From contig NZ_CP062182.1 of the NCBI RefSeq assembly GCF_022700675.1, forward strand, positions 186,001 to 250,000: a DNA stretch of 64,000 nucleotides, read 5' to 3'. The translations under genes were made by a program, and so were the position numbers. The notes beneath the pieces were generated by a model, which saw only the letters and a program-made list of their open reading frames with translations, made no database searches and was not told the origin of the DNA. How positions within the stretch are numbered: the stretch's first letter is position 1; the number at the start of each line of letters is the position of its first letter. This document shows positions 6,064 to 15,797 of this stretch, piece after piece. Source of the stretch: Acinetobacter sp. ASP199 (GTDB lineage Bacteria > Pseudomonadota > Gammaproteobacteria > Pseudomonadales > Moraxellaceae).

Positions 6064-6283
6064 GTTGTGGTGTGCATTCTACAGATTTTTCGGAGTGATG
6101 CAAGCCAAAAAATAACCGTTTAAATGCTTTGGTGAAATTTTAAGTTTTGATTGAATTCTGCATGAGACGAAAAGCTGCACAGCGAGAAATATATCAGCTG
6201 GATTCATGAAAATCGCCCACATGCGAATGGGTGGGCGAGGGTGGAAAATTTAAACTGGTTTTGGATATGAATAAAATTTAGGT

Positions 6284-6511
6284 TTATCGGCTTTTTAGGA
6301 TACGGTCCAAATCCTGAGCACATTCTTCCAAGGTAAAGGCCATGTCAAACTGCATTTGAGGTTTGAGTTCTTGAGCGAGCCTTCTCCACTGTTCGATAAG
6401 TTTTAGGGCTTTTTGAATCTTATGTTTGTTGACGTCCTTGGCAATGGTCGGGGTGTAACCGCCACGTTTAGCGTTTTTGATCTGTTTTGCATAGTTTGCG
6501 CTGTTATTCAT
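6284..6511 (-). CDS. Small basic hypothetical protein, 75 aa
   Basis: Starts MNNSANYAKQIKNAKRGGY and has a heptad-like amphipathic middle (KALKLIEQWRRLAQEL). The start is supported by GGAGCG 4-9 bases upstream. No signal peptide or membrane segment is present. I do not recognise the family. It stands alone between the tRNA-Thr and a lipoprotein gene. Confidence 0.6.
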   Translation of the reverse strand: MNNSANYAKQIKNAKRGGYTPTIAKDVNKHKIQKALKLIEQWRRLAQELKPQMQFDMAFTLEECAQDLDRILKSR

Positions 6512-6713
6512 GTTCGCTCCCGAATAGCAGTGTGTCTATCTTTAGTTTTTAGTTTGAATCAAGATCAATGGCGTGGTTGGTTAAATCTATTGGTTTTTGT
6601 TCTCCTTTTATATGCCCCCATAAGAGCAACATAACATAGCGATGATGACAATTAAATTAAGCTATTTTTGTGCCAAGTTAGAATTCATTTTTTCATTATT
6701 GAAAAGATAAGCA

Positions 6714-7064
6714 TCAGCAAACCACATTATCTTTCTCCTTATAAAAGTCCAGTGCCAGCTTCAGATCCTGCTCTAATTGTTCTTTAGTATTCTCTGGCGC
6801 AATTTTCATAAAGGCAGGTACGTACTCTTTGAAATAGATCTCAGGATAGTCTTCGCAGATGATTTTCTTGCGAACTTCCATAGGTGTATTTGGATGATCT
6901 AATTGATCGAGAAAGTTATTGATCTTCTGATCCGCCTGTTCAAACTGAATGACATCTACAGACTTTTTATTCGTCGACATTGCGGCCTCTGCCTGTTCAG
7001 GCTGCTTTTGGCAACCAGCCACAACAAACATAACGAGCAAGGTGGTAAAGGCGAGTTTCTTCAT
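6714..7064 (-). CDS. Small lipoprotein, unknown function
   Basis: 116 aa. A lipoprotein signal is clear: MKKLAFTTLLVMFVVAGC with cysteine at about residue 18, followed by a Q/E-rich linker. The rest is an acidic helical domain with two later cysteines (IICEDYP and a terminal VVC) that could form a disulfide in the periplasm. Probably anchored in the outer membrane, since no Asp follows the Cys. Unrecognised family. Confidence 0.75.
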   Translation of the reverse strand: MKKLAFTTLLVMFVVAGCQKQPEQAEAAMSTNKKSVDVIQFEQADQKINNFLDQLDHPNTPMEVRKKIICEDYPEIYFKEYVPAFMKIAPENTKEQLEQDLKLALDFYKEKDNVVC

Positions 7065-7150
7065 GGTCTTTTCTCGTTATTGTCCAGATCTGAAGATAAG
7101 AGTATAAGAGAATTCGCGACGGGATAAGAACAGATTTGTTTTAAATAAAA

Positions 7151-7180
7151 AAATACCTCCATCATGGGGAAGGAGGTAAA
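7151..7180 (-). terminator. Hairpin with T-run on minus strand
   Basis: TACCTCC / GGAGGTA stem followed on the minus strand by ATTTTTTTATT. No minus-strand gene is evident just upstream (7180-7465). It may be a second stop signal for the old tRNA-Ser transcript, or the end of an unrecognised RNA. Confidence 0.45.
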
Positions 7181-7468
7181 ATTGGAAAAGAAACTACAGC
7201 TAGTCTCTGATTACAGATTTTATATTAGATCACTTTTCAAGCAATTGGCAAAATATTACAAGCTTTATCGTGATTCATAAAAATTGAATCTGCTGTGATT
7301 TCTAACCATGGAATTTAGCTCAAATACTTGAGGAATTTTCCTTTACCAAGCTATAAAAATAAAGAATCTGGTTGAATATCCGTTCTTTGTGAGTTGCTAA
7401 AAAATGAATGATTAAAAAGATAGCCGATAAACGAAGAGTGCAGGAGAAAACTTTAATTACAGATAACA

Positions 7469-7506
7469 AAAAAGGCCTAAATCCTTTGGATTTAAACCTT
7501 TTAAGA
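7469..7506 (-). terminator. Original tRNA-Ser terminator, displaced by the island
   Basis: Imperfect hairpin (TAAATCC / GGATTTA core with outer AGG / CCT) ending in a T-run on the minus strand. It closely resembles the hairpin at 15522-15554 that now follows the intact tRNA-Ser. That is expected if the island brought its own terminator when it inserted at the tRNA 3' end. Confidence 0.6.
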
Positions 7507-7533
7507 CATCATGTGGCTACATGATTATAAATC

Positions 7534-7548
7534 TTGGCGGTGAGAGAG
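7534..7548 (-). repeat. Island attachment repeat, distal copy (duplicated tRNA-Ser 3' end)
   Basis: The 15 bases TTGGCGGTGAGAGAG are identical to 15586-15600, where they form the 3' end of tRNA-Ser including CCA. This copy has no tRNA body attached and marks the far end of the inserted element. Confidence 0.85.
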
Positions 7549-7611
7549 TCCGTCAGGTTTAATATCTAAATATATGAAATAGTTAAACATAAAAAAAACA
7601 TACTGTAAATA

Positions 7612-7631
7612 TACCGACATTTGTACCGTCA
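7612..7631 (+). promoter_or_regulatory. Candidate integrase arm-type sites, left end
   Basis: TACCGACA at 7612-7619 and TACCGTCA at 7624-7631, start-to-start distance 12 bp. The same two octamers with the same 12-bp spacing occur at the right end (15455 and 15467). Their assignment as integrase arm sites is inference. Confidence 0.5.
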
Positions 7632-7756
7632 TTGAATAGAATTTTATAGTTTGCTAAGTATAAAAATTAAAATAAAAGTGCTAAATTATAGAGTTATATA
7701 TGTTTTTATTTTATAAATAACAATACTTTGACCGAATATTTCTTTGGGGTAGGGCA

Positions 7757-8686
7757 ATGACTCAAATTTTACAGTATTTACCTTTTTCCCATTATAGAAA
7801 ATTTCTCCGATCTGCAGTTGATGGTTGCATGGGTATAGGTACACATGTAGCAGAAATAATTTGGGATGATGGGATCTGTAGAGAGTCTTTTGTTAAGTTT
7901 TATAAACATGATAAAAAGAGAGCATTATTGAATGAAGCGATCGGATTTTTACTGATCCAATCATTAGAACTTCCACAGCCAGAATTAGGCGGATTTTTAC
8001 AATATAAAATTTCTGAGACAGGAACTCCTGAGTTGTGGAAGGATGCGTCTGAAATAGAAAAATACAGAGGGGAAGTTATTGCATGGGTAACAACTAATAC
8101 TAATGGTCTCAATAAACGCATTGAGATAACTCAGCAACAAGATCCCCAGATTCAAGCCTATTTAATAAGCCAAGTACAAGAGTCACTTAAAAATTGGAAT
8201 CATCTTCCTGAACTCATTCTATGTGATGATTGGTTAGCTAATAATGATAGAAATTTAGGAAACCTATTAGAATTACCAAATAGAACTTTTACACTCATTG
8301 ATCATGGGGGAATTCTATATGGAGATAACTGGTCTGCATGGGATATTATGCAGGCAAGAACTATAAATGGACCGTTCCAGAAAGGATATGCTCAAATATA
8401 CAAGAGAAGATTCGGGGATGGATTGTTTTGGAAGCAGGATTTAGTAGCAGAATTAGTTGAGCTTAAGAAAAAACATATTCAAGGCTTGAATAAAGTTAGA
8501 GGAGAGTTATTTGCCTTAGTTGAGGAGTTTATTGACTCAGAAGAGGTAGATACTGGATTACCCCCTCAACCGATACAAAAAGTAAGTAAAATTCTGCAAG
8601 ATTTTCTAGAAGAAGCAGCTATCCAATATAGTACTATCGAGCAAAAATGTGATTATTGGCTTGATACTTCAGCTCAATATGTTTAG
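7757..8686 (+). CDS. HipA-like (HipA_2-type) kinase family protein
   Basis: 309 aa with a kinase-like set of motifs: a candidate ATP-contacting lysine K47 (SFVKFY), an NE pair at 59-60, a catalytic loop DDWLANNDRNLGNLL at 157-171 and a metal-binding LIDHGG at 180-185. This is the pattern of HipA/PI4-kinase-like folds, but the N-terminal HipA domain is absent and the protein is shorter than HipA (~440 aa), as in the separate HipA_2 group. The next gene begins 11 bases downstream. The AT-rich composition and island location mark it as acquired cargo. Phosphorylation target unknown. Confidence 0.7.
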   Translation: MTQILQYLPFSHYRKFLRSAVDGCMGIGTHVAEIIWDDGICRESFVKFYKHDKKRALLNEAIGFLLIQSLELPQPELGGFLQYKISETGTPELWKDASEIEKYRGEVIAWVTTNTNGLNKRIEITQQQDPQIQAYLISQVQESLKNWNHLPELILCDDWLANNDRNLGNLLELPNRTFTLIDHGGILYGDNWSAWDIMQARTINGPFQKGYAQIYKRRFGDGLFWKQDLVAELVELKKKHIQGLNKVRGELFALVEEFIDSEEVDTGLPPQPIQKVSKILQDFLEEAAIQYSTIEQKCDYWLDTSAQYV

Positions 8687-8697
8687 CAGGTATTAAC

Positions 8698-9594
8698 ATG
8701 AATTTCAAAAAATTCGAGAATAGATTTCTTAAAGAAACTATCCAGCAAACAGAGCTCATACAAGCTACGTGGTCACATATTCGCTTTAAGCCGGATTTAG
8801 TTACAATGGAAGAGCTAGCAATTGGTGTGCTAGTAAACTTGAATGGGATTATTTTTACTAAATTCATTGAAGACTTTGCGCGCCTTGAATGTGGTTTTGG
8901 TGCTGAGAATGCTTCCTATATAAAAAATTGTATTGACCTATTTGATGATTTTTTAAATCATAATTTCGAAAATTCTTTTTCTCATCAGCTCATCATTGAT
9001 AGAAGAGGTTTTGTTCAGGGCGAGTCTATTGACTCAATTCTTGACGATTTACTTTACCGAACAGTTCCTTTATCTCACCCTCATAACAATCTTAGAGGAA
9101 AAAAAGTATTTAGAACTGTAAAAACTGCAAAGTTTCATTCAGATGTTAAAGCATATGTAAAAAATAAAATCGGAAGTATCTACAGTGAAATTTTTTCAGA
9201 AAATATTGAGCCTGTAGGGGATGAAATAGTTGGGTTTAGAAAGTTACCAATCGCACTTAATGTGAAAAATGGAGAAAAATTAGGAGATTTAGTTTCTTCA
9301 GTATATGCGACTCCTGAAAAAATCGAAATTAACTGCCTTAAAGCATTGAATAATATTGTTTTTACAAAAAAATTCTCTCAGCGGGAAACTGATTTTAAAT
9401 TGTTTATGTTATCTCCTGACTATGAGAATTTAGAAGTAATGTCTAAGAGTGATAAAAATAAACGTACTGAGATTATCAAAGATTTCAAATGGAGTTTAGC
9501 GTGTGAGCAAATTGATTTAATTGAGGGTGATACATCTGACTGTATATCAGAGAAAATAATTGAATGGTCTGAGTTAGATAGAGTATTTGGATGA
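8698..9594 (+). CDS. Partner of HipA-like kinase; DUF3037-like N terminus
   Basis: 298 aa, no signal or membrane segment. Residues ~24-46 (TWSHIRFKPDLVTMEELAIG) resemble the opening of DUF3037 proteins, a family that, from memory, is often encoded beside short HipA-like kinases. The rest is helical and unrecognised. It is separated from the kinase by 11 bases, so the two form one transcription unit. It ends at a strong bidirectional terminator. The family call is tentative; the pairing is seen directly. Confidence 0.55.
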   Translation: MNFKKFENRFLKETIQQTELIQATWSHIRFKPDLVTMEELAIGVLVNLNGIIFTKFIEDFARLECGFGAENASYIKNCIDLFDDFLNHNFENSFSHQLIIDRRGFVQGESIDSILDDLLYRTVPLSHPHNNLRGKKVFRTVKTAKFHSDVKAYVKNKIGSIYSEIFSENIEPVGDEIVGFRKLPIALNVKNGEKLGDLVSSVYATPEKIEINCLKALNNIVFTKKFSQRETDFKLFMLSPDYENLEVMSKSDKNKRTEIIKDFKWSLACEQIDLIEGDTSDCISEKIIEWSELDRVFG

Positions 9595-9601
9595 AGAAGA
9601 A

Positions 9602-9628
9602 AATAAGCTACCTTAGAGGTAGCTTATT
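9602..9628. terminator. Bidirectional terminator
   Basis: Perfect 11-bp stem AATAAGCTACC / GGTAGCTTATT with a 5-base loop, between convergent genes ending at 9594 and 9632. Confidence 0.8.
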
Positions 9629-9631
9629 ATT

Positions 9632-10552
9632 TCAATCTAATAGCGCATTATATTTTGAAGGAAGAATTCCGTATTCTCCCCAACTTGGATGATCGATACT
9701 GTAACCTATTCCATTAGAAGTGATTTTTCCCCATATTAATAAGTATTGATTGATATTGTTTTCTGTAAGTCCATGTCTATTAAGATCACCAATATATCCT
9801 TTTAAGCAAAAATCACGCACGGTATGGTGTTCTTTGAGATAAACAAAACGTATATTGTCATCTCGCTTTGGCTCAAAGTCTCTGACAGCTGTAATGCGCC
9901 CGTAATAAAGACGTTCTTTTTGATCTCCGTCGATACTTATTGTATTTAATTCATCCTCAGTTAAAGAATCAATATTGACTAAAAGAGAGCTTAGTAGTTC
10001 AGGTTGATCTAGATTTGGTAAAATAAAAAACTTTTCATAATTTTTATGGAAATTTTTACATATGCCATTTACTGACATGATTTTTGATGGCAAGGAAACA
10101 GTAGCTCCATGATGTCTTGGGATTGGCAAATCAATATTCTCACCATCTTCACTTTCTACAGGTGTTTGATCATAGACACCTGATTCATTTGGTGTAGGTT
10201 CTGGTTGTTGCCGCATAAATCCTGAAACTATTGCTAGCTGATCGCTCTCTATCAGATGAAGTGCTTCAGTTTCATTTTCAAAATGTAGTCCGATTTTCTT
10301 TTTGGATCTCCATATACAAGGAGTCTCTGATTGCTTATGACTAAATGATGCTTTTCTTCCATTAGAGAAGATTCCCTCAGATGGATTCCGGAAAACAGCA
10401 ACTCCACATTTCGGACAAAATAATTTATCCTTCATATCCCGGGTCGCGTCATTAAGCATAACGGTTGTACCGCTTGTATTTAGGTCTTCTAAGCTACTTA
10501 AACTAATATCAAAACCATCTAATAGTTTGGCAATTTTTTGTTGATTAGACAT
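9632..10552 (-). CDS. Unknown protein with CoiA-like zinc ribbon
   Basis: 306 aa. C46-P-K-C49 together with H72 and C79 could bind zinc. The arrangement CPKC...SFSHKQ resembles the N terminus of CoiA-like competence/nuclease proteins, but no nuclease motif is seen further on. The centre is low-complexity and acidic (residues ~115-145), and the C-terminal half contains aromatic beta-like segments. Island cargo, AT-rich, convergent with the kinase pair. The function is unknown; the zinc-ribbon reading is moderate. Confidence 0.6.
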   Translation of the reverse strand: MSNQQKIAKLLDGFDISLSSLEDLNTSGTTVMLNDATRDMKDKLFCPKCGVAVFRNPSEGIFSNGRKASFSHKQSETPCIWRSKKKIGLHFENETEALHLIESDQLAIVSGFMRQQPEPTPNESGVYDQTPVESEDGENIDLPIPRHHGATVSLPSKIMSVNGICKNFHKNYEKFFILPNLDQPELLSSLLVNIDSLTEDELNTISIDGDQKERLYYGRITAVRDFEPKRDDNIRFVYLKEHHTVRDFCLKGYIGDLNRHGLTENNINQYLLIWGKITSNGIGYSIDHPSWGEYGILPSKYNALLD

Positions 10553-10970
10553 ATCTATAAAGTAATTTTAAAGTAATAAATATGAATCAAATATATCACT
10601 ATTTAGTCAGGGAAAAGTTATTTAGCTAATGTAGTAACTTAATGTTAAGTTTTTATAACGTTAAAGTATAAGAACTTTATTTTACTGCCAATTTTTATGA
10701 ATAGTCTCCATTCCATAAACTCTTAAATTTCTAGGACTTCACTCATTTTAATCTATCTAGCGGAATGCAATCGCTAGATGGATACTCGTTATTAAGAACA
10801 ATCGTGTCTGTATTCGTAGTCAATTTTATTTAATACGGCTTGGGCATTCCTGTGGAAAATCAATCTAGAGAAGCCATATTGAACTTAAGACTATTCTCTT
10901 TCATCTATTGTAATAGGGTCTATACATTACATTAATGAATACCTATATGTTATTAGGCACAACTAAACAT
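10553..10970. other. Intergenic region of the island
   Basis: About 420 bp, AT-rich. It presumably carries the promoter for the leftward zinc-ribbon gene; no gene, tRNA or clear repeat is seen. Confidence 0.5.
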
Positions 10971-10997
10971 AAAAAAACCGCCGTGGCTACGGCGGTT
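10971..10997 (-). terminator. Strong terminator of the island's leftward operon
   Basis: AACCGCCGT / ACGGCGGTT stem with a 4-base loop and seven T on the minus strand. A third CGGCGGTT copy lies at 11012-11019 and could form an alternative pairing. Confidence 0.85.
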
Positions 10998-11050
10998 ACT
11001 AGCGTTAAGCACGGCGGTTGTAATTCAAAACTCATCCGAAATTTGCGAAT

Positions 11051-12130
11051 CTAGAATTTATTTGACAAGTTCTTTACTGACTCACGTAACCGTTCATTCA
11101 GATTTTGATTTGTACAAATAAACTTTTTGAAATCCCGATAATGCCCATTTTTGAGAATCGGTGAGGAGAGCTTTTGTCCGTATGGGCGGATATAGAGCGA
11201 GTAAAGTTTCCTTTGCCCAAGCGTCGCCGTATGGGTCAATTGAGTAAAAGTAATCTTCCTGAAGCCAGTTTTCACCACATTTCGTAAATCCTCTAGAGCA
11301 TGATCAAGATTGCTTAATCTTACCTCCGCTCTCAAACGCCATTCCTCACGGGGAAGGGGGCGTTTATTATGATCCGTTTTCTTAAAGTAAAAATGATAGT
11401 AAACATCATCCTTACGATAGTCATTGACTCCAATATTGAAGCCTTGGAGTAGTAAGTTTTTAAGCCTAATAGGCTCATAAGGGATACTCTGATTTTCCCC
11501 CTTTAGCCTAAAGATACGGATGTTTTGTACATCTGCATCAAACTGAATAGATTTGAATAGAGCGGTTAAAAACTCAGGTGGAGCATTGTAAAAATCATGC
11601 GCAAGCTCAATGCACGTAATTCTGAAATTAAATGCACCATAATTTTTCTTAAGCGCATGAACAATTTTATGAATGCACTTTTTATTGCTCACGTCATGAA
11701 TACGAATATTAAAGGTACATGAAGCCATGCTATCAGTATTAACCGTAGCGTTATGCTTATGTTCTTCAGTAATAAAATGTTTTTTACCGATTTTCTCGGT
11801 TAGAAACTTTTTGATATAGCTTCTTTGAGTCGCCTTAATAGTGTTGAAACTCACATTAATAAAATCAATTTGGGATTTAATTTTGATCAGGCTTTGTTGC
11901 ACCTGAATGGATGCACCATTTTTAAAGCTGAGCATTTTTGGTTTCAACTTTTTACGATCAAATTCATAGTTGTGAATGTTACTCTTTTCGATAATATTCT
12001 GATGTTCTGCTACTTCTACAGCATGATTCCATTTGGATTGATAATGGTTTAGAAGATTATTTAGATGATCGATGCTAGATGTCATAGTGACATAGTTTGG
12101 ACTATTGTCCTGTACAGATTCTAAGTGCAT
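11051..12130 (-). CDS. Possible rolling-circle-type replication protein of the island
   Basis: 359 aa, basic. Segments such as FRITCIELAHDFYNA (about residues 170-184) and EEWRLRAEVRLSNLDHALEDL resemble the (R/I)xDxAxDF and RxEv motifs of replication initiation factors of filamentous phages and small plasmids. A tyrosine-based active site cannot be pinned down with certainty. It is the last gene of a leftward chain starting at the AlpA-like gene and is followed by a strong terminator. Confident that it is a real gene; the Rep call is tentative. Confidence 0.55.
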   Translation of the reverse strand: MHLESVQDNSPNYVTMTSSIDHLNNLLNHYQSKWNHAVEVAEHQNIIEKSNIHNYEFDRKKLKPKMLSFKNGASIQVQQSLIKIKSQIDFINVSFNTIKATQRSYIKKFLTEKIGKKHFITEEHKHNATVNTDSMASCTFNIRIHDVSNKKCIHKIVHALKKNYGAFNFRITCIELAHDFYNAPPEFLTALFKSIQFDADVQNIRIFRLKGENQSIPYEPIRLKNLLLQGFNIGVNDYRKDDVYYHFYFKKTDHNKRPLPREEWRLRAEVRLSNLDHALEDLRNVVKTGFRKITFTQLTHTATLGQRKLYSLYIRPYGQKLSSPILKNGHYRDFKKFICTNQNLNERLRESVKNLSNKF

Positions 12131-12194
12131 ACCAGTATTTCAAATTCGTTCAAGGAAAGCATGTGCACTATCGCAATGCACATGCTTAGTTTGC

Positions 12195-12362
12195 TTACTC
12201 GACTAAATATTTTTCGACAGCAGTATCAATTAATAAGGTCTTCAATCCCTTATAAATGATCGTGTATTCTGTTGTAGAGGAGCTTTTTTCCTCTACCTCT
12301 AGAATTTCACTGTGTCTTAAAATATCTGCAAAAAGTTCAGTGCTGATAATTGTTAAATTCAT
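12195..12362 (-). CDS. 55-aa hypothetical protein, translationally coupled
   Basis: Starts MNLTIISTELFADILRH and ends KYLVE. Its ATG shares a base with the TGA of the upstream gene (TGATG at 12364-12360), which argues for coupled translation. No known domain. It lies in the chain between the 80-aa protein and the Rep-like gene. Confidence 0.65.
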   Translation of the reverse strand: MNLTIISTELFADILRHSEILEVEEKSSSTTEYTIIYKGLKTLLIDTAVEKYLVE

Positions 12363-12604
12363 CAGACTTTACTCTGCGGTAAGCGACGGATTAAATTTTC
12401 TTTTAGGTCGAGTGCATTGGTATCGACTTTATTAAGAATGAGGTAATCAACCATATAGTTGACAGCCACATTGATTCCTTGTTCTGTACTAAGATCAAAT
12501 GTCCCATCATTCTCTTCTAATAGATTATGAATCGTATCATCGATAATCTCTTGTTTTAGCTTAGCTAGCTCTTCAGAGCATTTGCGGTTCATTACTTCAG
12601 TCAT
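12362..12604 (-). CDS. 80-aa acidic hypothetical protein
   Basis: Starts MTEVMNRKCSEELAKLK; the ATG at 12604 is chosen because AAAGGA lies 6 bases before it. It overlaps the end of the upstream gene by 8 bases and the start of the 55-aa gene by one. Helical, acidic, no signal peptide. Part of the island's leftward chain; function unknown. Confidence 0.65.
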   Translation of the reverse strand: MTEVMNRKCSEELAKLKQEIIDDTIHNLLEENDGTFDLSTEQGINVAVNYMVDYLILNKVDTNALDLKENLIRRLPQSKV

Positions 12605-12845
12605 GTTGTTTCCTTTGTTTTGGTTCACCTGAGCTTAGGTGAGAGGTTATAAATGCCACTAATGTGGTTTTGGTGTATCGTCTTTCGCCGTTGATGACTT
12701 GGACATTCAGTTTGTATCCATCTTGATGAAGGTATTGAGAGGGATTAATCATCAGATACCGATACCAAGCCTTTTGAGAGCGTAAAGGTAGCCATTGGGC
12801 TAGAAACCTTGCGGCTTCCCAAGTTGTAAATAATTCGTTTTGCAT
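12597..12845 (-). CDS. Small DNA-binding-like protein of the island
   Basis: 82 aa. The pattern TTWEAARFLAQWL...GERRYTKTTLVAFI resembles a winged helix of the excisionase/MerR type, but the match is loose. Its ATG overlaps the stop of the AlpA-like gene (TAATG), so the two are translated together. It may assist excision or regulate the chain. Confidence 0.6.
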   Translation of the reverse strand: MQNELFTTWEAARFLAQWLPLRSQKAWYRYLMINPSQYLHQDGYKLNVQVINGERRYTKTTLVAFITSHLSSGEPKQRKQHD

Positions 12846-13135
12846 TACTGTTTTGACTCAAGCCATTCGATTAGGTCAGTGGTACGCCACGCGCTCACAC
12901 GTTCGCTCAAGCGTACAGGCGCAGGCATATCTCCTTTACGTACTAAGTCATAGATAGTCGACCGACCTAATGGCAAGATGCCTGAAGATGGAGGGCGAGC
13001 TTTGATTCTTCGCTCTAAACCTTCTTTGGTTTTGTAAATACGCTCTTTATGTTCCGCAGTTGTGGCGAGTTGACACATTCGCCAATAATCACGTGCTAGT
13101 AAGCGTTTGTAGATGTTAGGATCTTGGGGGGACAT
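12845..13135 (-). CDS. AlpA-like regulator / excisionase
   Basis: 96 aa. The C-terminal half carries the AlpA signature: LGRSTIYDLVRKGDMPAPV then LSERVSAWRTTDLIEWL (residues ~56-92). AlpA proteins of P4-like elements activate integrase or promote excision. First gene of the leftward chain. Its ribosome site (GAGGAA) lies inside an inverted repeat at 13143-13179, suggesting self-control. Confidence 0.85.
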   Translation of the reverse strand: MSPQDPNIYKRLLARDYWRMCQLATTAEHKERIYKTKEGLERRIKARPPSSGILPLGRSTIYDLVRKGDMPAPVRLSERVSAWRTTDLIEWLESKQ

Positions 13136-13142
13136 GGATAAT

Positions 13143-13179
13143 TCCTCATCATTACGGTAGTGTTTCGTAGTGATGAGGA
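13143..13179. promoter_or_regulatory. Inverted repeat covering AlpA gene leader
   Basis: Arms 13143-13157 (TCCTCATCATTACGG) and 13165-13179 (TCGTAGTGATGAGGA) match at 13 of 15 positions around a 7-base centre, 8 bases before the AlpA-like ATG. It could be an operator or an RNA hairpin hiding the ribosome site. An AT-rich promoter-like region follows at 13190-13245. Confidence 0.6.
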
Positions 13180-13248
13180 GTGTAGAAGTTTTTTTCTTAT
13201 CCTATGTTTTTACAATTATTTTTGAAAAAAATGCATAATTTTATGCTT

Positions 13249-14091
13249 CTAAGTATTTGTTTTATTTTTAAAAATAGTAATAATATTTTTTCTTAAAATC
13301 TCAATTTCGTGTGAATTAGCTTCAATAAAAAATTTATTGATCTTATCAGGGTTAAGTTTTGTGCCTTTAGGCTTAAGCAAATTCATAATTTGATCATTTA
13401 GTTCTTTTTGGCTAGTTTTAGACGTTACTAAAATAATATGTTTGAGTATGAAAATAAGTTGATGAAGATCTTGGGTTAAATTTTCTTGAGATCTATCAAA
13501 AGCGTCTTTTGTTTTTGGTTTACGTGAAAATTTATTCCAACTATTTGTAGTGATGAATAGCTCTTCTCTCGAAAAATTTCGTTTGCCCCATGTGTAATCT
13601 AAATTTTTTTGAGCTTCCTCTATATCTGAATAATTTGTATAGAATTCAGGAAATAGTTCAGGTTCAGAAACCTTAACTCCAGATTCTATTTGCCCTTTTA
13701 AAAATTCAATATGTGGAGAGTTTTCTAAAAATATCCATTTGAAAATTGGTGTATGAATCAGCCCATCAGGGTGCAGAAAATTTTTATATTTCTCTTTATC
13801 ATTAGCAATTTTATTTTCTATATGCTTTAACTTTAATGCATGTCGTGTTTGTGAAACTGTAAGAGTCTTTTTAGGATTTAAGATAACTTTTTTTAATTCT
13901 TCTGTATTTTCAGCGATAAACAATTGATTACCGTATTCAATTGAATGAACAAGTCCTGAAATATCATCAACTGACGCAAAATAATTATTTACACGGTAGC
14001 AAATTTCCAATTCACCTGAAGAGACTAAATTGGAAATTTTACTATAGCTACCAAGTTTATTTTTTACTTCATCAATTGATATGTATTGCAT
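13249..14091 (-). CDS. Unknown island protein, 280 aa
   Basis: Starts 6 bases after the integrase stop, so it is expressed with it. The first ~60 residues (ISIDEVKNKLGSYSKISNLVSSGELEICYRV) look like a helix-turn-helix of the kind that begins many phage-island proteins. The remainder is lysine-rich and helical with no motif I recognise. Lower GC than the integrase. It may be a recombination accessory or cargo. Confidence 0.65.
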   Translation of the reverse strand: MQYISIDEVKNKLGSYSKISNLVSSGELEICYRVNNYFASVDDISGLVHSIEYGNQLFIAENTEELKKVILNPKKTLTVSQTRHALKLKHIENKIANDKEKYKNFLHPDGLIHTPIFKWIFLENSPHIEFLKGQIESGVKVSEPELFPEFYTNYSDIEEAQKNLDYTWGKRNFSREELFITTNSWNKFSRKPKTKDAFDRSQENLTQDLHQLIFILKHIILVTSKTSQKELNDQIMNLLKPKGTKLNPDKINKFFIEANSHEIEILRKNIITIFKNKTNT

Positions 14092-14097
14092 TAACCG

Positions 14098-15378
14098 CTA
14101 CGACGCTTTTGTTCCTAAATTAAATGCAATGATATTGTTTTCATCTTCTGGTTTAAATACCGATACATCTCCACCTTGACGTAAAGTGTCCAGATAGTCT
14201 GCCCATAACTGCATCAGCTCACGTCTACGGCGTAAAAACTTAGTCCGGTTGTAAGCTGTGCCATTCGGATCACGTACCGTATGCGCTAATTGGTGTTCAA
14301 TGATGTCTACCCGATATTCAAGTTCTTCACCTAAGATTGTACGTGCTGTTGCTCGGAAGCCATGAGCCGTATGTTTGCCTTTATATCCAAGTCTATTGAG
14401 TGCCTGACGAATAGTGTCCTCACTCATACTTTCATACGGTGATTTCACGCTAGGGAAAACAAATCTAGAGGTTGTCCGCATATCTTCAAGCTGTTTCAAA
14501 ATGTCAAAGGCTTGGCGAGATAGGGGAACGATATGCTCTTGATGCGTCTTTGATGCACGAAAGCACAAACGCTGATTTTCAAAATCCACATGTTCCCATA
14601 GCAATTCACGGATTTCATTTGGACGTTGATAGATATAAGCTGATAGTTTCAATGCAAGCTCTGTCCGTAAACGTGCACGTGGGCTTTCAGCATGATATCG
14701 CCAAATCTTTTGAAGCATTGTTTTAAGCTCTGATTCGCTTACTACGGCTTTATGATTACCTTTAATAGGTTTGGGTAAGGTAATGTCATAAGCTGGGTTA
14801 TAGGTGATCAGACGGCGTTTAAACGGAAGTTTTAAAACCATACCCATAATAGACTTCACACGGCGAGCCGACTCGAGTGCACCACGCTCTACAAGGCTAT
14901 TCGTTACATCACGTTCAAGCTGTTCGACACTTAATTCAGTCACAGGTAATTTGCCAATGAACGGCAAAATATCACGATTGAGTTTTCGGATTGTTTCTCG
15001 GTCTACTTTGCCTTCAAGTTCACGAATTTTAAGCCATTCAGTTGAAAATTTTTCAAAGGTATTTTTAAGTTTAGCTTTTAGCTCATTTCTATGGTTATTT
15101 CGTTCTTCCGCAGGATCTACACCGTTAGCAATCATGCGTTTTACATCGTCGCATTTTAGGCGAGCTTCCTTAAGGCTGACTGTATCGTATGTACCCAAAG
15201 CTAGCGTATTGCGTTTCTGGCTAATAGGGCGACGATAATCTAATCGCCAATACTTTGATCCATTCTTATGAACTAAAAGATATAACCCACCACCATCCGT
15301 ATATTTGTTATTAATGTTGGGATCAAAATATAGATTCTTAATAGTTTTAGCATCAAGTTTATTAATCTTTTTAGCCAT
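14098..15378 (-). CDS. Tyrosine recombinase, P4-type integrase
   Basis: 426 aa with an N-terminal DUF4102-like arm-binding domain (DAKTIKNLYFDP, DGGGLYLLVHKNGSKYW, LGTYDTVSLKEAR), a core-binding domain, and catalytic residues R252 (QRPNEIRELLW), H339 and R342 (HGFRAT), H366 (LAH) and Y376 (TAYNR). All are intact. It reads away from tRNA-Ser, 208 bp distant, the usual geometry for tRNA-targeting integrases. GAGG about 10 bases upstream supports the ATG. Confidence 0.95.
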   Translation of the reverse strand: MAKKINKLDAKTIKNLYFDPNINNKYTDGGGLYLLVHKNGSKYWRLDYRRPISQKRNTLALGTYDTVSLKEARLKCDDVKRMIANGVDPAEERNNHRNELKAKLKNTFEKFSTEWLKIRELEGKVDRETIRKLNRDILPFIGKLPVTELSVEQLERDVTNSLVERGALESARRVKSIMGMVLKLPFKRRLITYNPAYDITLPKPIKGNHKAVVSESELKTMLQKIWRYHAESPRARLRTELALKLSAYIYQRPNEIRELLWEHVDFENQRLCFRASKTHQEHIVPLSRQAFDILKQLEDMRTTSRFVFPSVKSPYESMSEDTIRQALNRLGYKGKHTAHGFRATARTILGEELEYRVDIIEHQLAHTVRDPNGTAYNRTKFLRRRRELMQLWADYLDTLRQGGDVSVFKPEDENNIIAFNLGTKAS

Positions 15379-15393
15379 TTTGTGAGCCTCATT

Positions 15394-15474
15394 TGACGGT
15401 ATAAATTTCAGGAAAAACCTGACTCACTCCTTATTTTAGTCATCTGCGAGCAGATACCGTCAAAAGTACCGACA
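15394..15474. promoter_or_regulatory. Candidate integrase arm-type sites, right end
   Basis: TACCGTCA at 15455-15462 and TACCGACA at 15467-15474 (12 bp apart), plus an inverted copy TGACGGTA at 15394-15401; TGTCGGGA at 15479 is one base off the inverted motif. They match the left-end pair and overlap the integrase promoter region. Confidence 0.5.
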
Positions 15475-15521
15475 AAGATGTCGGGATACTACTGGATTGC
15501 ACCGTAGTGTATAGGCGTAAA

Positions 15522-15554
15522 AAAAGGCTTGAACCCTTTAGATTCAAGCCTTTT
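15522..15554 (-). terminator. tRNA-Ser terminator supplied by the island
   Basis: 12-bp stem AAAAGGCTTGAA / TTCAAGCCTTTT with a 9-base loop; on the minus strand it is followed by TTTTTACGCC. Related to the displaced hairpin at 7469-7506. Confidence 0.8.
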
Positions 15555-15585
15555 GCACTACGGTACAGTCCCGTAGAAATCAAAT

Positions 15586-15600
15586 TTGGCGGTGAGAGAG
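15586..15600 (-). repeat. Island attachment repeat, tRNA-proximal copy
   Basis: Identical to 7534-7548. It comprises the 3' end of tRNA-Ser (CCA, discriminator G, acceptor strand and edge of the T-stem) plus one flanking base. Insertion regenerated a complete tRNA. Confidence 0.85.
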
Positions 15601-15677
15601 GGATTCGAACCCTCGATACGCTATAAACGTATACACACTTTCCAGGCGTGCTCCTTCAGCCACTCGGACACCTCACC
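15587..15677 (-). tRNA. tRNA-Ser (anticodon GGA)
   Basis: 91 nt on the minus strand with CCA and a long variable arm typical of class II tRNAs. The acceptor GGTGAGG pairs with TCTCACC (one G-T pair), the anticodon loop is CTGGAAA, and the T-loop is GGTTCGAATCC. Integration target of the island. Confidence 0.97.
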
Positions 15678-15797
15678 ATGGCGGTGGATGATATAGAAAA
15701 AAAACCAGTCTGCCAAGCTTGAAACAATTGATTTGCAGAAAAAGTTTGGAGGCAGTGCTATGATTCGCAAAAATGCTTTCTAAAACGAAGACAACAT

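What the first reader, a model, noticed from the sequence alone, without database searches (positions are those of the whole stretch)
7757..9594. Two-gene kinase system on a tRNA island: HipA-like kinase plus DUF3037-like partner
The first gene has the HipA/PI4K-type catalytic set (K47, NE at 59-60, NDRNLGNLL, IDHG) but lacks the HipA N-terminal domain and the usual HipB antitoxin. Instead an unrelated 298-aa protein follows after 11 bases. From memory, short HipA-like kinases next to DUF3037 proteins recur in bacteria without a settled function. Location as AT-rich cargo of an integrative island makes an anti-phage or abortive-infection role plausible. Function is inference.
Basis: partly seen in the sequence, partly recalled or inferred. 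Interest (0 to 1): 0.75.

Follow-up and report, generated by a model that had tools for sequence, protein, structure and literature searches.

The report
Divergent HipA-kinase/DUF3037 toxin-antitoxin-like pair
A mobile element in a bacterial chromosome carries two neighbouring genes, a kinase and its partner, that are distant cousins of a recently reported phage-defence pair but were not recognised by the defence-gene library I could test.

The parts
7757..8686 (+). HipA/PI4K-type kinase, 309 aa, proposed toxin/effector; K47, E60, catalytic loop N162-D164-R165-N169, D182
   Evidence: PHROG 11186 E 1e-47; Pfam HipA_2 only E 0.007, under its cut-off
8698..9594 (+). partner, 298 aa, proposed antitoxin: N-terminal DUF3037-like domain (about residues 21-124) and C-terminal half (about 143-298) of PD-(D/E)XK-like fold without conserved active-site residues
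   Evidence: PHROG 14695 E 2e-52
9602..9628 (.). stem-loop just behind the partner's stop codon, listed on the - strand with a T run; possible terminator between the pair and the converging 306-aa gene
   Evidence: 2 found in 7400-9900, shuffles mean 1.0, so weak
7535..7549 (+). left attachment repeat, copy of the tRNA-Ser 3' end
15587..15601 (+). right attachment repeat inside tRNA-Ser(GGA) (15587-15677, - strand)
14098..15378 (-). tyrosine integrase of the island
   Evidence: Pfam Phage_integrase E 7.5e-17, Arm-DNA-bind_3 E 2.1e-24
12845..13135 (-). AlpA-type excisionase/regulator of the island
   Evidence: Pfam Phage_AlpA E 6e-8
11051..12130 (-). 359-aa backbone protein of the island with relatives in 14 further Acinetobacter genomes; replication-initiator-like by eye only
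   Evidence: 15 of 149 genomes incl. own
9632..10552 (-). 306-aa protein of unknown function next to the pair, converging with it
   Evidence: no family match above cut-off

Best explanation
The two genes are a toxin-antitoxin-like phage-defence pair, a divergent branch of the HipA-kinase/DUF3037 kind (HipAD). The kinase is the effector. The partner, made from the same operon, binds and restrains it. On infection by a phage the restraint is lifted, the kinase phosphorylates host (or phage) proteins, by analogy with HipA/HipT perhaps an aminoacyl-tRNA synthetase or another translation component, and growth stops before phage release, which protects neighbouring cells and the mobile element that carries the pair. 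Shown here: the pair, its conservation as a unit, the kinase fold with an intact active site, remote homology of both proteins to HipA and HipD of a coliphage, carriage by phages, mini-plasmids and a tRNA island. Inferred: toxicity, neutralisation, defence, trigger and target.
Against: No experiment on this branch. Window proteins have no PADLOC or NCBIfam match at E 1 and pass no Pfam cut-off. The partner-HipD link rests on about 100 residues; the C-terminal halves did not align, and a sister partner family does not align to HipD directly (0.3%). The profile comparisons are single pairs, so their E-values are not those of a database search. The distance correlation shows that the genes travel together, not what they do. 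The window copy is not behind a repressor. No complex was modelled.
Confidence: 0.75

Rival explanations
1. A plain addiction or persistence module: a kinase toxin with its antitoxin that stabilises the mobile element (plasmid, prophage, island) or causes dormancy, without a role against phages.
For: Carried by small plasmids, one of 3462 bp with three listed genes, two of them the pair, and by integrated elements; HipA of E. coli is known (established knowledge) for persistence.
Against: Repeated placement behind phage repressors and beside BREX in a sister lineage; distant relatives HipAD and the Retron-Sda1 pair protect from phages.
Confidence: 0.15
2. A regulator of the mobile element itself: the kinase phosphorylates a repressor or excision factor and the pair tunes lysogeny or excision.
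For: Close neighbourhood with repressors in several phages; overlaps of 4 to 23 bases with the upstream ORF in L004, L005, L054, L097, L098.
Against: The pair also sits without a recognised repressor before it, on the window island and on mini-plasmids; the neighbours differ while the pair stays.
Confidence: 0.06
3. Interference between mobile elements: the island is a phage satellite and the pair acts on its helper or on rival phages only. (Compatible with the best explanation; it narrows the target.)
For: Island anatomy (integrase, AlpA, small size; no structural or packaging family among the nine island proteins scanned) resembles satellites; cargo slot is exchangeable.
Against: No packaging or capsid-remodelling gene was identified, so satellite status is unproven; the same kind of pair occurs in phage genomes such as Mcat22 and D14P.
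Confidence: 0.2

Closest known systems
HipAD / DS-6 / PADLOC PDC-M66 (HipA-like kinase + DUF3037 protein)
   Same: gene order kinase then partner, overlapping or nearly so; kinase of the HipA/PI4K type; partner with the DUF3037 core motif; place behind cI in phages
   Different: kinases 270-321 aa in 35 of 36 non-redundant core loci against 236-249 aa in the five annotated canonical ones; separate branch with support 100/99 and 100/100; C-terminal half of the partner not aligned; window proteins not matched by the PDC-M66 profiles
HipA-like kinase + DUF3037 in the Retron-Sda1 operon (PMC12548924)
   Same: two-gene architecture; reported there: kinase needed for defence against Bas51, deletion of the DUF3037 gene toxic (passages)
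   Different: no reverse transcriptase among the island proteins scanned and no Rfam match but the tRNA in 7000-15700
HipBA and HipBST
   Different: no HipB-type gene, no HipA N-terminal domain or HipS seen beside the kinase; partner is of another family
CtkA (Helicobacter pylori kinase)
   Different: 14% identity; biological role not compared
PHROG 11186 and PHROG 14695
   Same: window proteins match over almost their whole length (E 1e-47, 2e-52)
   Different: both are listed there as unknown function

Membership tests
HipA-kinase/DUF3037 pair (HipAD kind) | HipA/PI4K-type kinase with intact ATP-binding, catalytic and metal residues | tested here: met
HipA-kinase/DUF3037 pair (HipAD kind) | directly adjacent partner with a DUF3037-type domain | tested here: met
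   by profile comparison and through relatives; the window protein alone gives no Pfam match
HipA-kinase/DUF3037 pair (HipAD kind) | pair conserved as a unit | tested here: met
HipA-kinase/DUF3037 pair (HipAD kind) | kinase needed for phage protection; partner neutralises the kinase | not testable with these tools
   experimental for distant relatives only (passages)
PADLOC PDC-M66 (the profile-defined subset) | match to PDC-M66A and PDC-M66B profiles | tested here: not met
   no match up to E 1 for either window protein; distant relatives match weakly. Hence filed as a divergent branch, not as PDC-M66
HipBA | HipB antitoxin with HTH next to the kinase | tested here: not met
   no such ORF of 60 aa or more beside 7757-8686; partner has no HTH family match
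HipBA | N-terminal domain of HipA before the kinase domain | tested here: not met
   kinase domain spans residues 6-300 of 309
PD-(D/E)XK superfamily (partner C-terminal half) | alpha-beta fold of the superfamily | tested here: inconclusive
PD-(D/E)XK superfamily (partner C-terminal half) | conserved D...(D/E)xK active site | tested here: not met
   no column from 156 to 209 is acidic or basic in 60% of 37 partners (E207 59%, K208 57% come nearest)
Phage satellites | integrase, regulator, and packaging or helper-interference genes | tested here: inconclusive
   integrase and AlpA met; no packaging gene recognised

The most novel reading that the evidence does not exclude
The partner couples a DUF3037 kinase-restraining domain to a catalytically dead nuclease-fold domain that acts as a nucleic-acid (or nucleotide-signal) sensor: binding of phage DNA ends, or of a phage factor, releases a PI4K-type kinase. 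That would be a sensor-gated kinase defence shared, with diverged sensor halves, by three branches of HipA-partner pairs that phages, plasmids, BREX operons and retrons trade among themselves.
Probability: 0.25. Interest if true: 0.7.

Novelty: new variant of a known kind. Interest (0 to 1): 0.45.

Why it matters
It extends a defence kind reported in 2025-26 to a branch whose window members the tested PADLOC copy (2.0.0, 2023) misses, with relatives in Acinetobacter, a Moraxella phage, Pseudomonas, enterobacterial mini-plasmids and Allochromatium/Thiorhodococcus. It supplies the bridge that links HipD to a third partner family. It gives a testable proposal for what the partner senses. Two E. 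coli plasmids of 3.5-3.6 kb carry a pair of this branch (2 of 5426 genomes), convenient for laboratory work.

Tried and rejected
Considered and rejected: an unrelated second gene; a HipBA or HipBST operon; a retron operon; an active nuclease as partner; an autoregulatory operator before the kinase (the inverted repeats are AT-rich and were not tested against chance; 10 promoter-like sites against a mean of 11.4 in shuffles, so none is supported).

Led nowhere: PDB sequence search with the partner profile (one row, E 0.67) and with the kinase profile (one row, E 0.11); PADLOC and NCBIfam on window proteins; Pfam on 45 distant partners (none at E 0.001). Foldseek 'pdb' was busy at every try, so the PDB comparison rests on the second-look tool; its 50 rows for the kinase show HipT but no entry titled HipA. 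BFVD rows for the partner had low TM-scores (0.26 to 0.38 for the query in the best five) despite low E-values and are not used. A complex could not be modelled. A literature search for Acinetobacter, phage satellite and tRNA-Ser found 0 papers with all three. The paper that named HipAD (Brenes and Laub 2025) is not held; only its reference entry was seen.

Results against a tidy story: one core kinase, that of the mini-plasmids, does pass the Pfam HipA_2 cut-off (36.4 bits against 27; 1 of 5 relatives scanned) and its record calls it HipA family kinase, so the branch is not wholly invisible; no partner of 5 scanned passes the DUF3037 cut-off (best 21.1 against 22.6).

Own rules that could bias counts: 'core' means kinase E below 1e-25 with the profile. 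L008-L017 came from a partner search, and L007 and L013 are both the window, so the 53 kinase-seeded loci (43 viral, 10 genome contigs) are the fair count. Near-copies are many; after their removal 36 of 36 core kinases have the partner, and of 50 more distant kinases 45 have an ORF of 277-315 aa next to them. Of the other five, L132 and L088 end 170 and 507 bases after the kinase, L103 and L111 have a longer overlapping ORF outside my limit, and L055 has none.

Full report
WHAT IS THERE. Two ORFs lie at 7757-8686 (309 aa) and 8698-9594 (298 aa) on the + strand with 11 bases between them. The kinase is single copy in the 3.05-Mb genome. They sit at the left end of an element bounded by a 15-base copy (one mismatch) of the 3' end of tRNA-Ser(GGA), 7535-7549 and 15587-15601 (mean 0.00 in 100 shuffles), with integrase (14098-15378) and AlpA (12845-13135) toward the other end. 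Empty site (20 loci, L147-L166, of which L147 is the window): in G009 (L149) and G002 (L148) the left flank, window 6210 or 6281 to 6675, lies 288 and 198 bases from the tRNA side, so the element is absent there. L151 shows part of the flank 1.25 kb off. In six more (L155-L158, L160, L161) only about 85 bases, window 7465-7548, align, next to the tRNA. In the other ten the left flank did not align.

PAIRING. Kinase searches of IMG/VR gave 72 loci from 170 matched stretches and of GTDB genomes 43 from 92. With loci from other searches, 132 loci were examined. Core loci (kinase E < 1e-25): 69 of 70 have the partner at once downstream, the other (L096) ends 56 bases after the kinase. Of the 53 that came from kinase searches, 52 do. 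After removal of near-copies 36 of 36 do, with gaps of -73 to +18 bases, 11 of them overlaps of 4 bases. In the same 149 Acinetobacter genomes separate searches found the partner in 10 and the kinase in 10, the same ten, own included. Over 30 non-redundant pairs kinase and partner distances correlate with r 0.96; 0 of 5000 permutations reach it, the largest being 0.22. The ten core loci from genome contigs (L090-L099) are from Acinetobacter, Allochromatium, Thiorhodococcus, Pseudomonas, Marinobacterium and an Oceanospirillales MAG. In a sample of 274 genomes of the class the partner profile found 2, the window's own and one partial match, against 6 for PDC-M66B: outside Acinetobacter the branch is rare in that sample.

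WHERE RELATIVES LIVE. Moraxella phage Mcat22 (upstream gene Phage_CI_repr); Pseudomonas phage vB_PaeS-D14P behind the gene annotated cI; a 3.66-Mb A. baumannii record filed among plasmids, behind a repressor-like ORF recognised by eye; plasmids of Salmonella, Klebsiella, Raoultella and E. coli of 3.5-6.4 kb; a Photobacterium plasmid. Of 36 non-redundant core loci 29 have an upstream ORF within my limits; of these 11 match Peptidase_S24, 8 HTH_3, 1 Phage_CI_repr at E 0.001, and members overlap between families. So a repressor is frequent, not general. Coliphage PhiR5_1 has cI-HipA-HipD-Kil. From established knowledge this is the place of rexAB in phage lambda.

BRANCHES. A 90-row kinase tree puts the 37 core kinases on one side of a branch with 100/99 support and the 8 canonical kinases with 100/100; the 45 others are not one clade. 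Partner profiles: core to sister 99.2%, core to canonical 92.4%, sister to canonical 0.3%. Kinases: core to sister 99.9%, core to canonical 96.2%. The core partner is therefore the bridge. Three near-identical loci of the sister set (L103, L106, L111) have brxL right before the kinase: the L106 protein matches BrxL over 669 residues, E 4.9e-184, with 97% and 95% identical copies in the other two. I count them as one lineage.

CARGO SLOT. The 359-aa backbone protein has relatives in 15 of 149 Acinetobacter genomes, own included. In G012 a copy of the element in the same chromosomal neighbourhood (integrase 90%, AlpA 50%, 88-aa ORF 56%, backbone protein 34% identical) has an 875-aa protein with weak SMC similarity (E 4.8e-4) and a 240-aa protein in place of the pair. 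In G015 the element is split over contigs; a piece with the attachment sequence and a backbone fragment (88-92% identical) holds a Cdc48-like AAA+ ATPase (E 4e-47) and an 855-aa protein with a Peptidase_S8 domain (E 7.6e-25); from memory this resembles the defence pair IetAS. These are 2 of the 14 other genomes; the rest were not opened.

MECHANISM. Shown: anatomy, fold, active site, unit conservation, kinship, mobile carriage. Published for distant relatives: mutating a predicted catalytic residue of DS-6A ends defence, and AlphaFold3 predicts DS-6A/DS-6B and DS-6B/DNA contacts (PMC13092281, passages); in the Retron-Sda1 operon deletion of the HipA kinase ends defence against Bas51, deletion of DUF3037 is toxic, and the RT and RNA are not needed (PMC12548924, passages). 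Inferred for the window: kinase as toxin, partner as antitoxin, release on infection, arrest of the cell. The kinase target is unknown; translation is a guess by analogy with HipA and HipT.

VERDICT. A divergent variant of a known kind. Against a higher score: the principle was published in 2025-26, and nothing here tests function. For some score: the window pair is missed by the profiles tested, its branch links three partner families, and the probable dead nuclease-like half suggests how the partner may sense infection. In the held library 3 papers hold DUF3037 (one is on plants), 1 holds PDC-M66 and 1 DUF1829. Of these PMC12548924 and PMC13092281 were seen in passages; the passages do not describe this branch. 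PMC8008677, on HipA-family kinases of gut phages, was also seen in passages.

Noticed in passing
L182 4219-5214 and 5232-7799 (G015:C65): AAA+ (Cdc48-like) ATPase plus Peptidase_S8 protein in the cargo slot of a related element; IetAS-like from memory.
   Followed up: partly
L183 4917-7544 and 7789-8511 (G012:C1): Another copy of the element carries an 875-aa protein with a Walker A motif and weak SMC similarity plus a 240-aa protein in the slot; possibly an undescribed defence pair.
   Followed up: partly
L106 3573-7367, L111 1111-4906, L103 80-3541: Sister-branch kinase and partner directly behind BREX brxL, 40-41 bases away: a possible BREX add-on; the three loci are near-identical.
   Followed up: partly
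window 6714-7064 (-): 116-aa probable lipoprotein (by eye) just outside the left end of the island; 36-44% identical proteins lie close to the kinase pair in L010/L184 (one place), L027, L030 and L035, and 44-46% identical ones farther off in L031-L033. Possible third gene or common prophage cargo.
   Followed up: partly
L183 about 4812; G012:C1:202590-226952: In G012 a further copy of the attachment sequence lies 24 kb from the tRNA-Ser, so the site seems to hold two elements in tandem.
   Followed up: no
alignments A5/A6 (45 loci): A third set of kinase-partner pairs whose partners match neither Pfam DUF3037 (0 of 45) nor HipD directly; of 26 proteins scanned (13 of the 45 pairs) 12 match PDC-M66A, and 4 and 2 weakly match two PDC-M03A profiles.
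   Followed up: partly
window 13249-14091 (-) and 9632-10552 (-): Two island proteins (280 and 306 aa) without a family match above cut-off.
   Followed up: no
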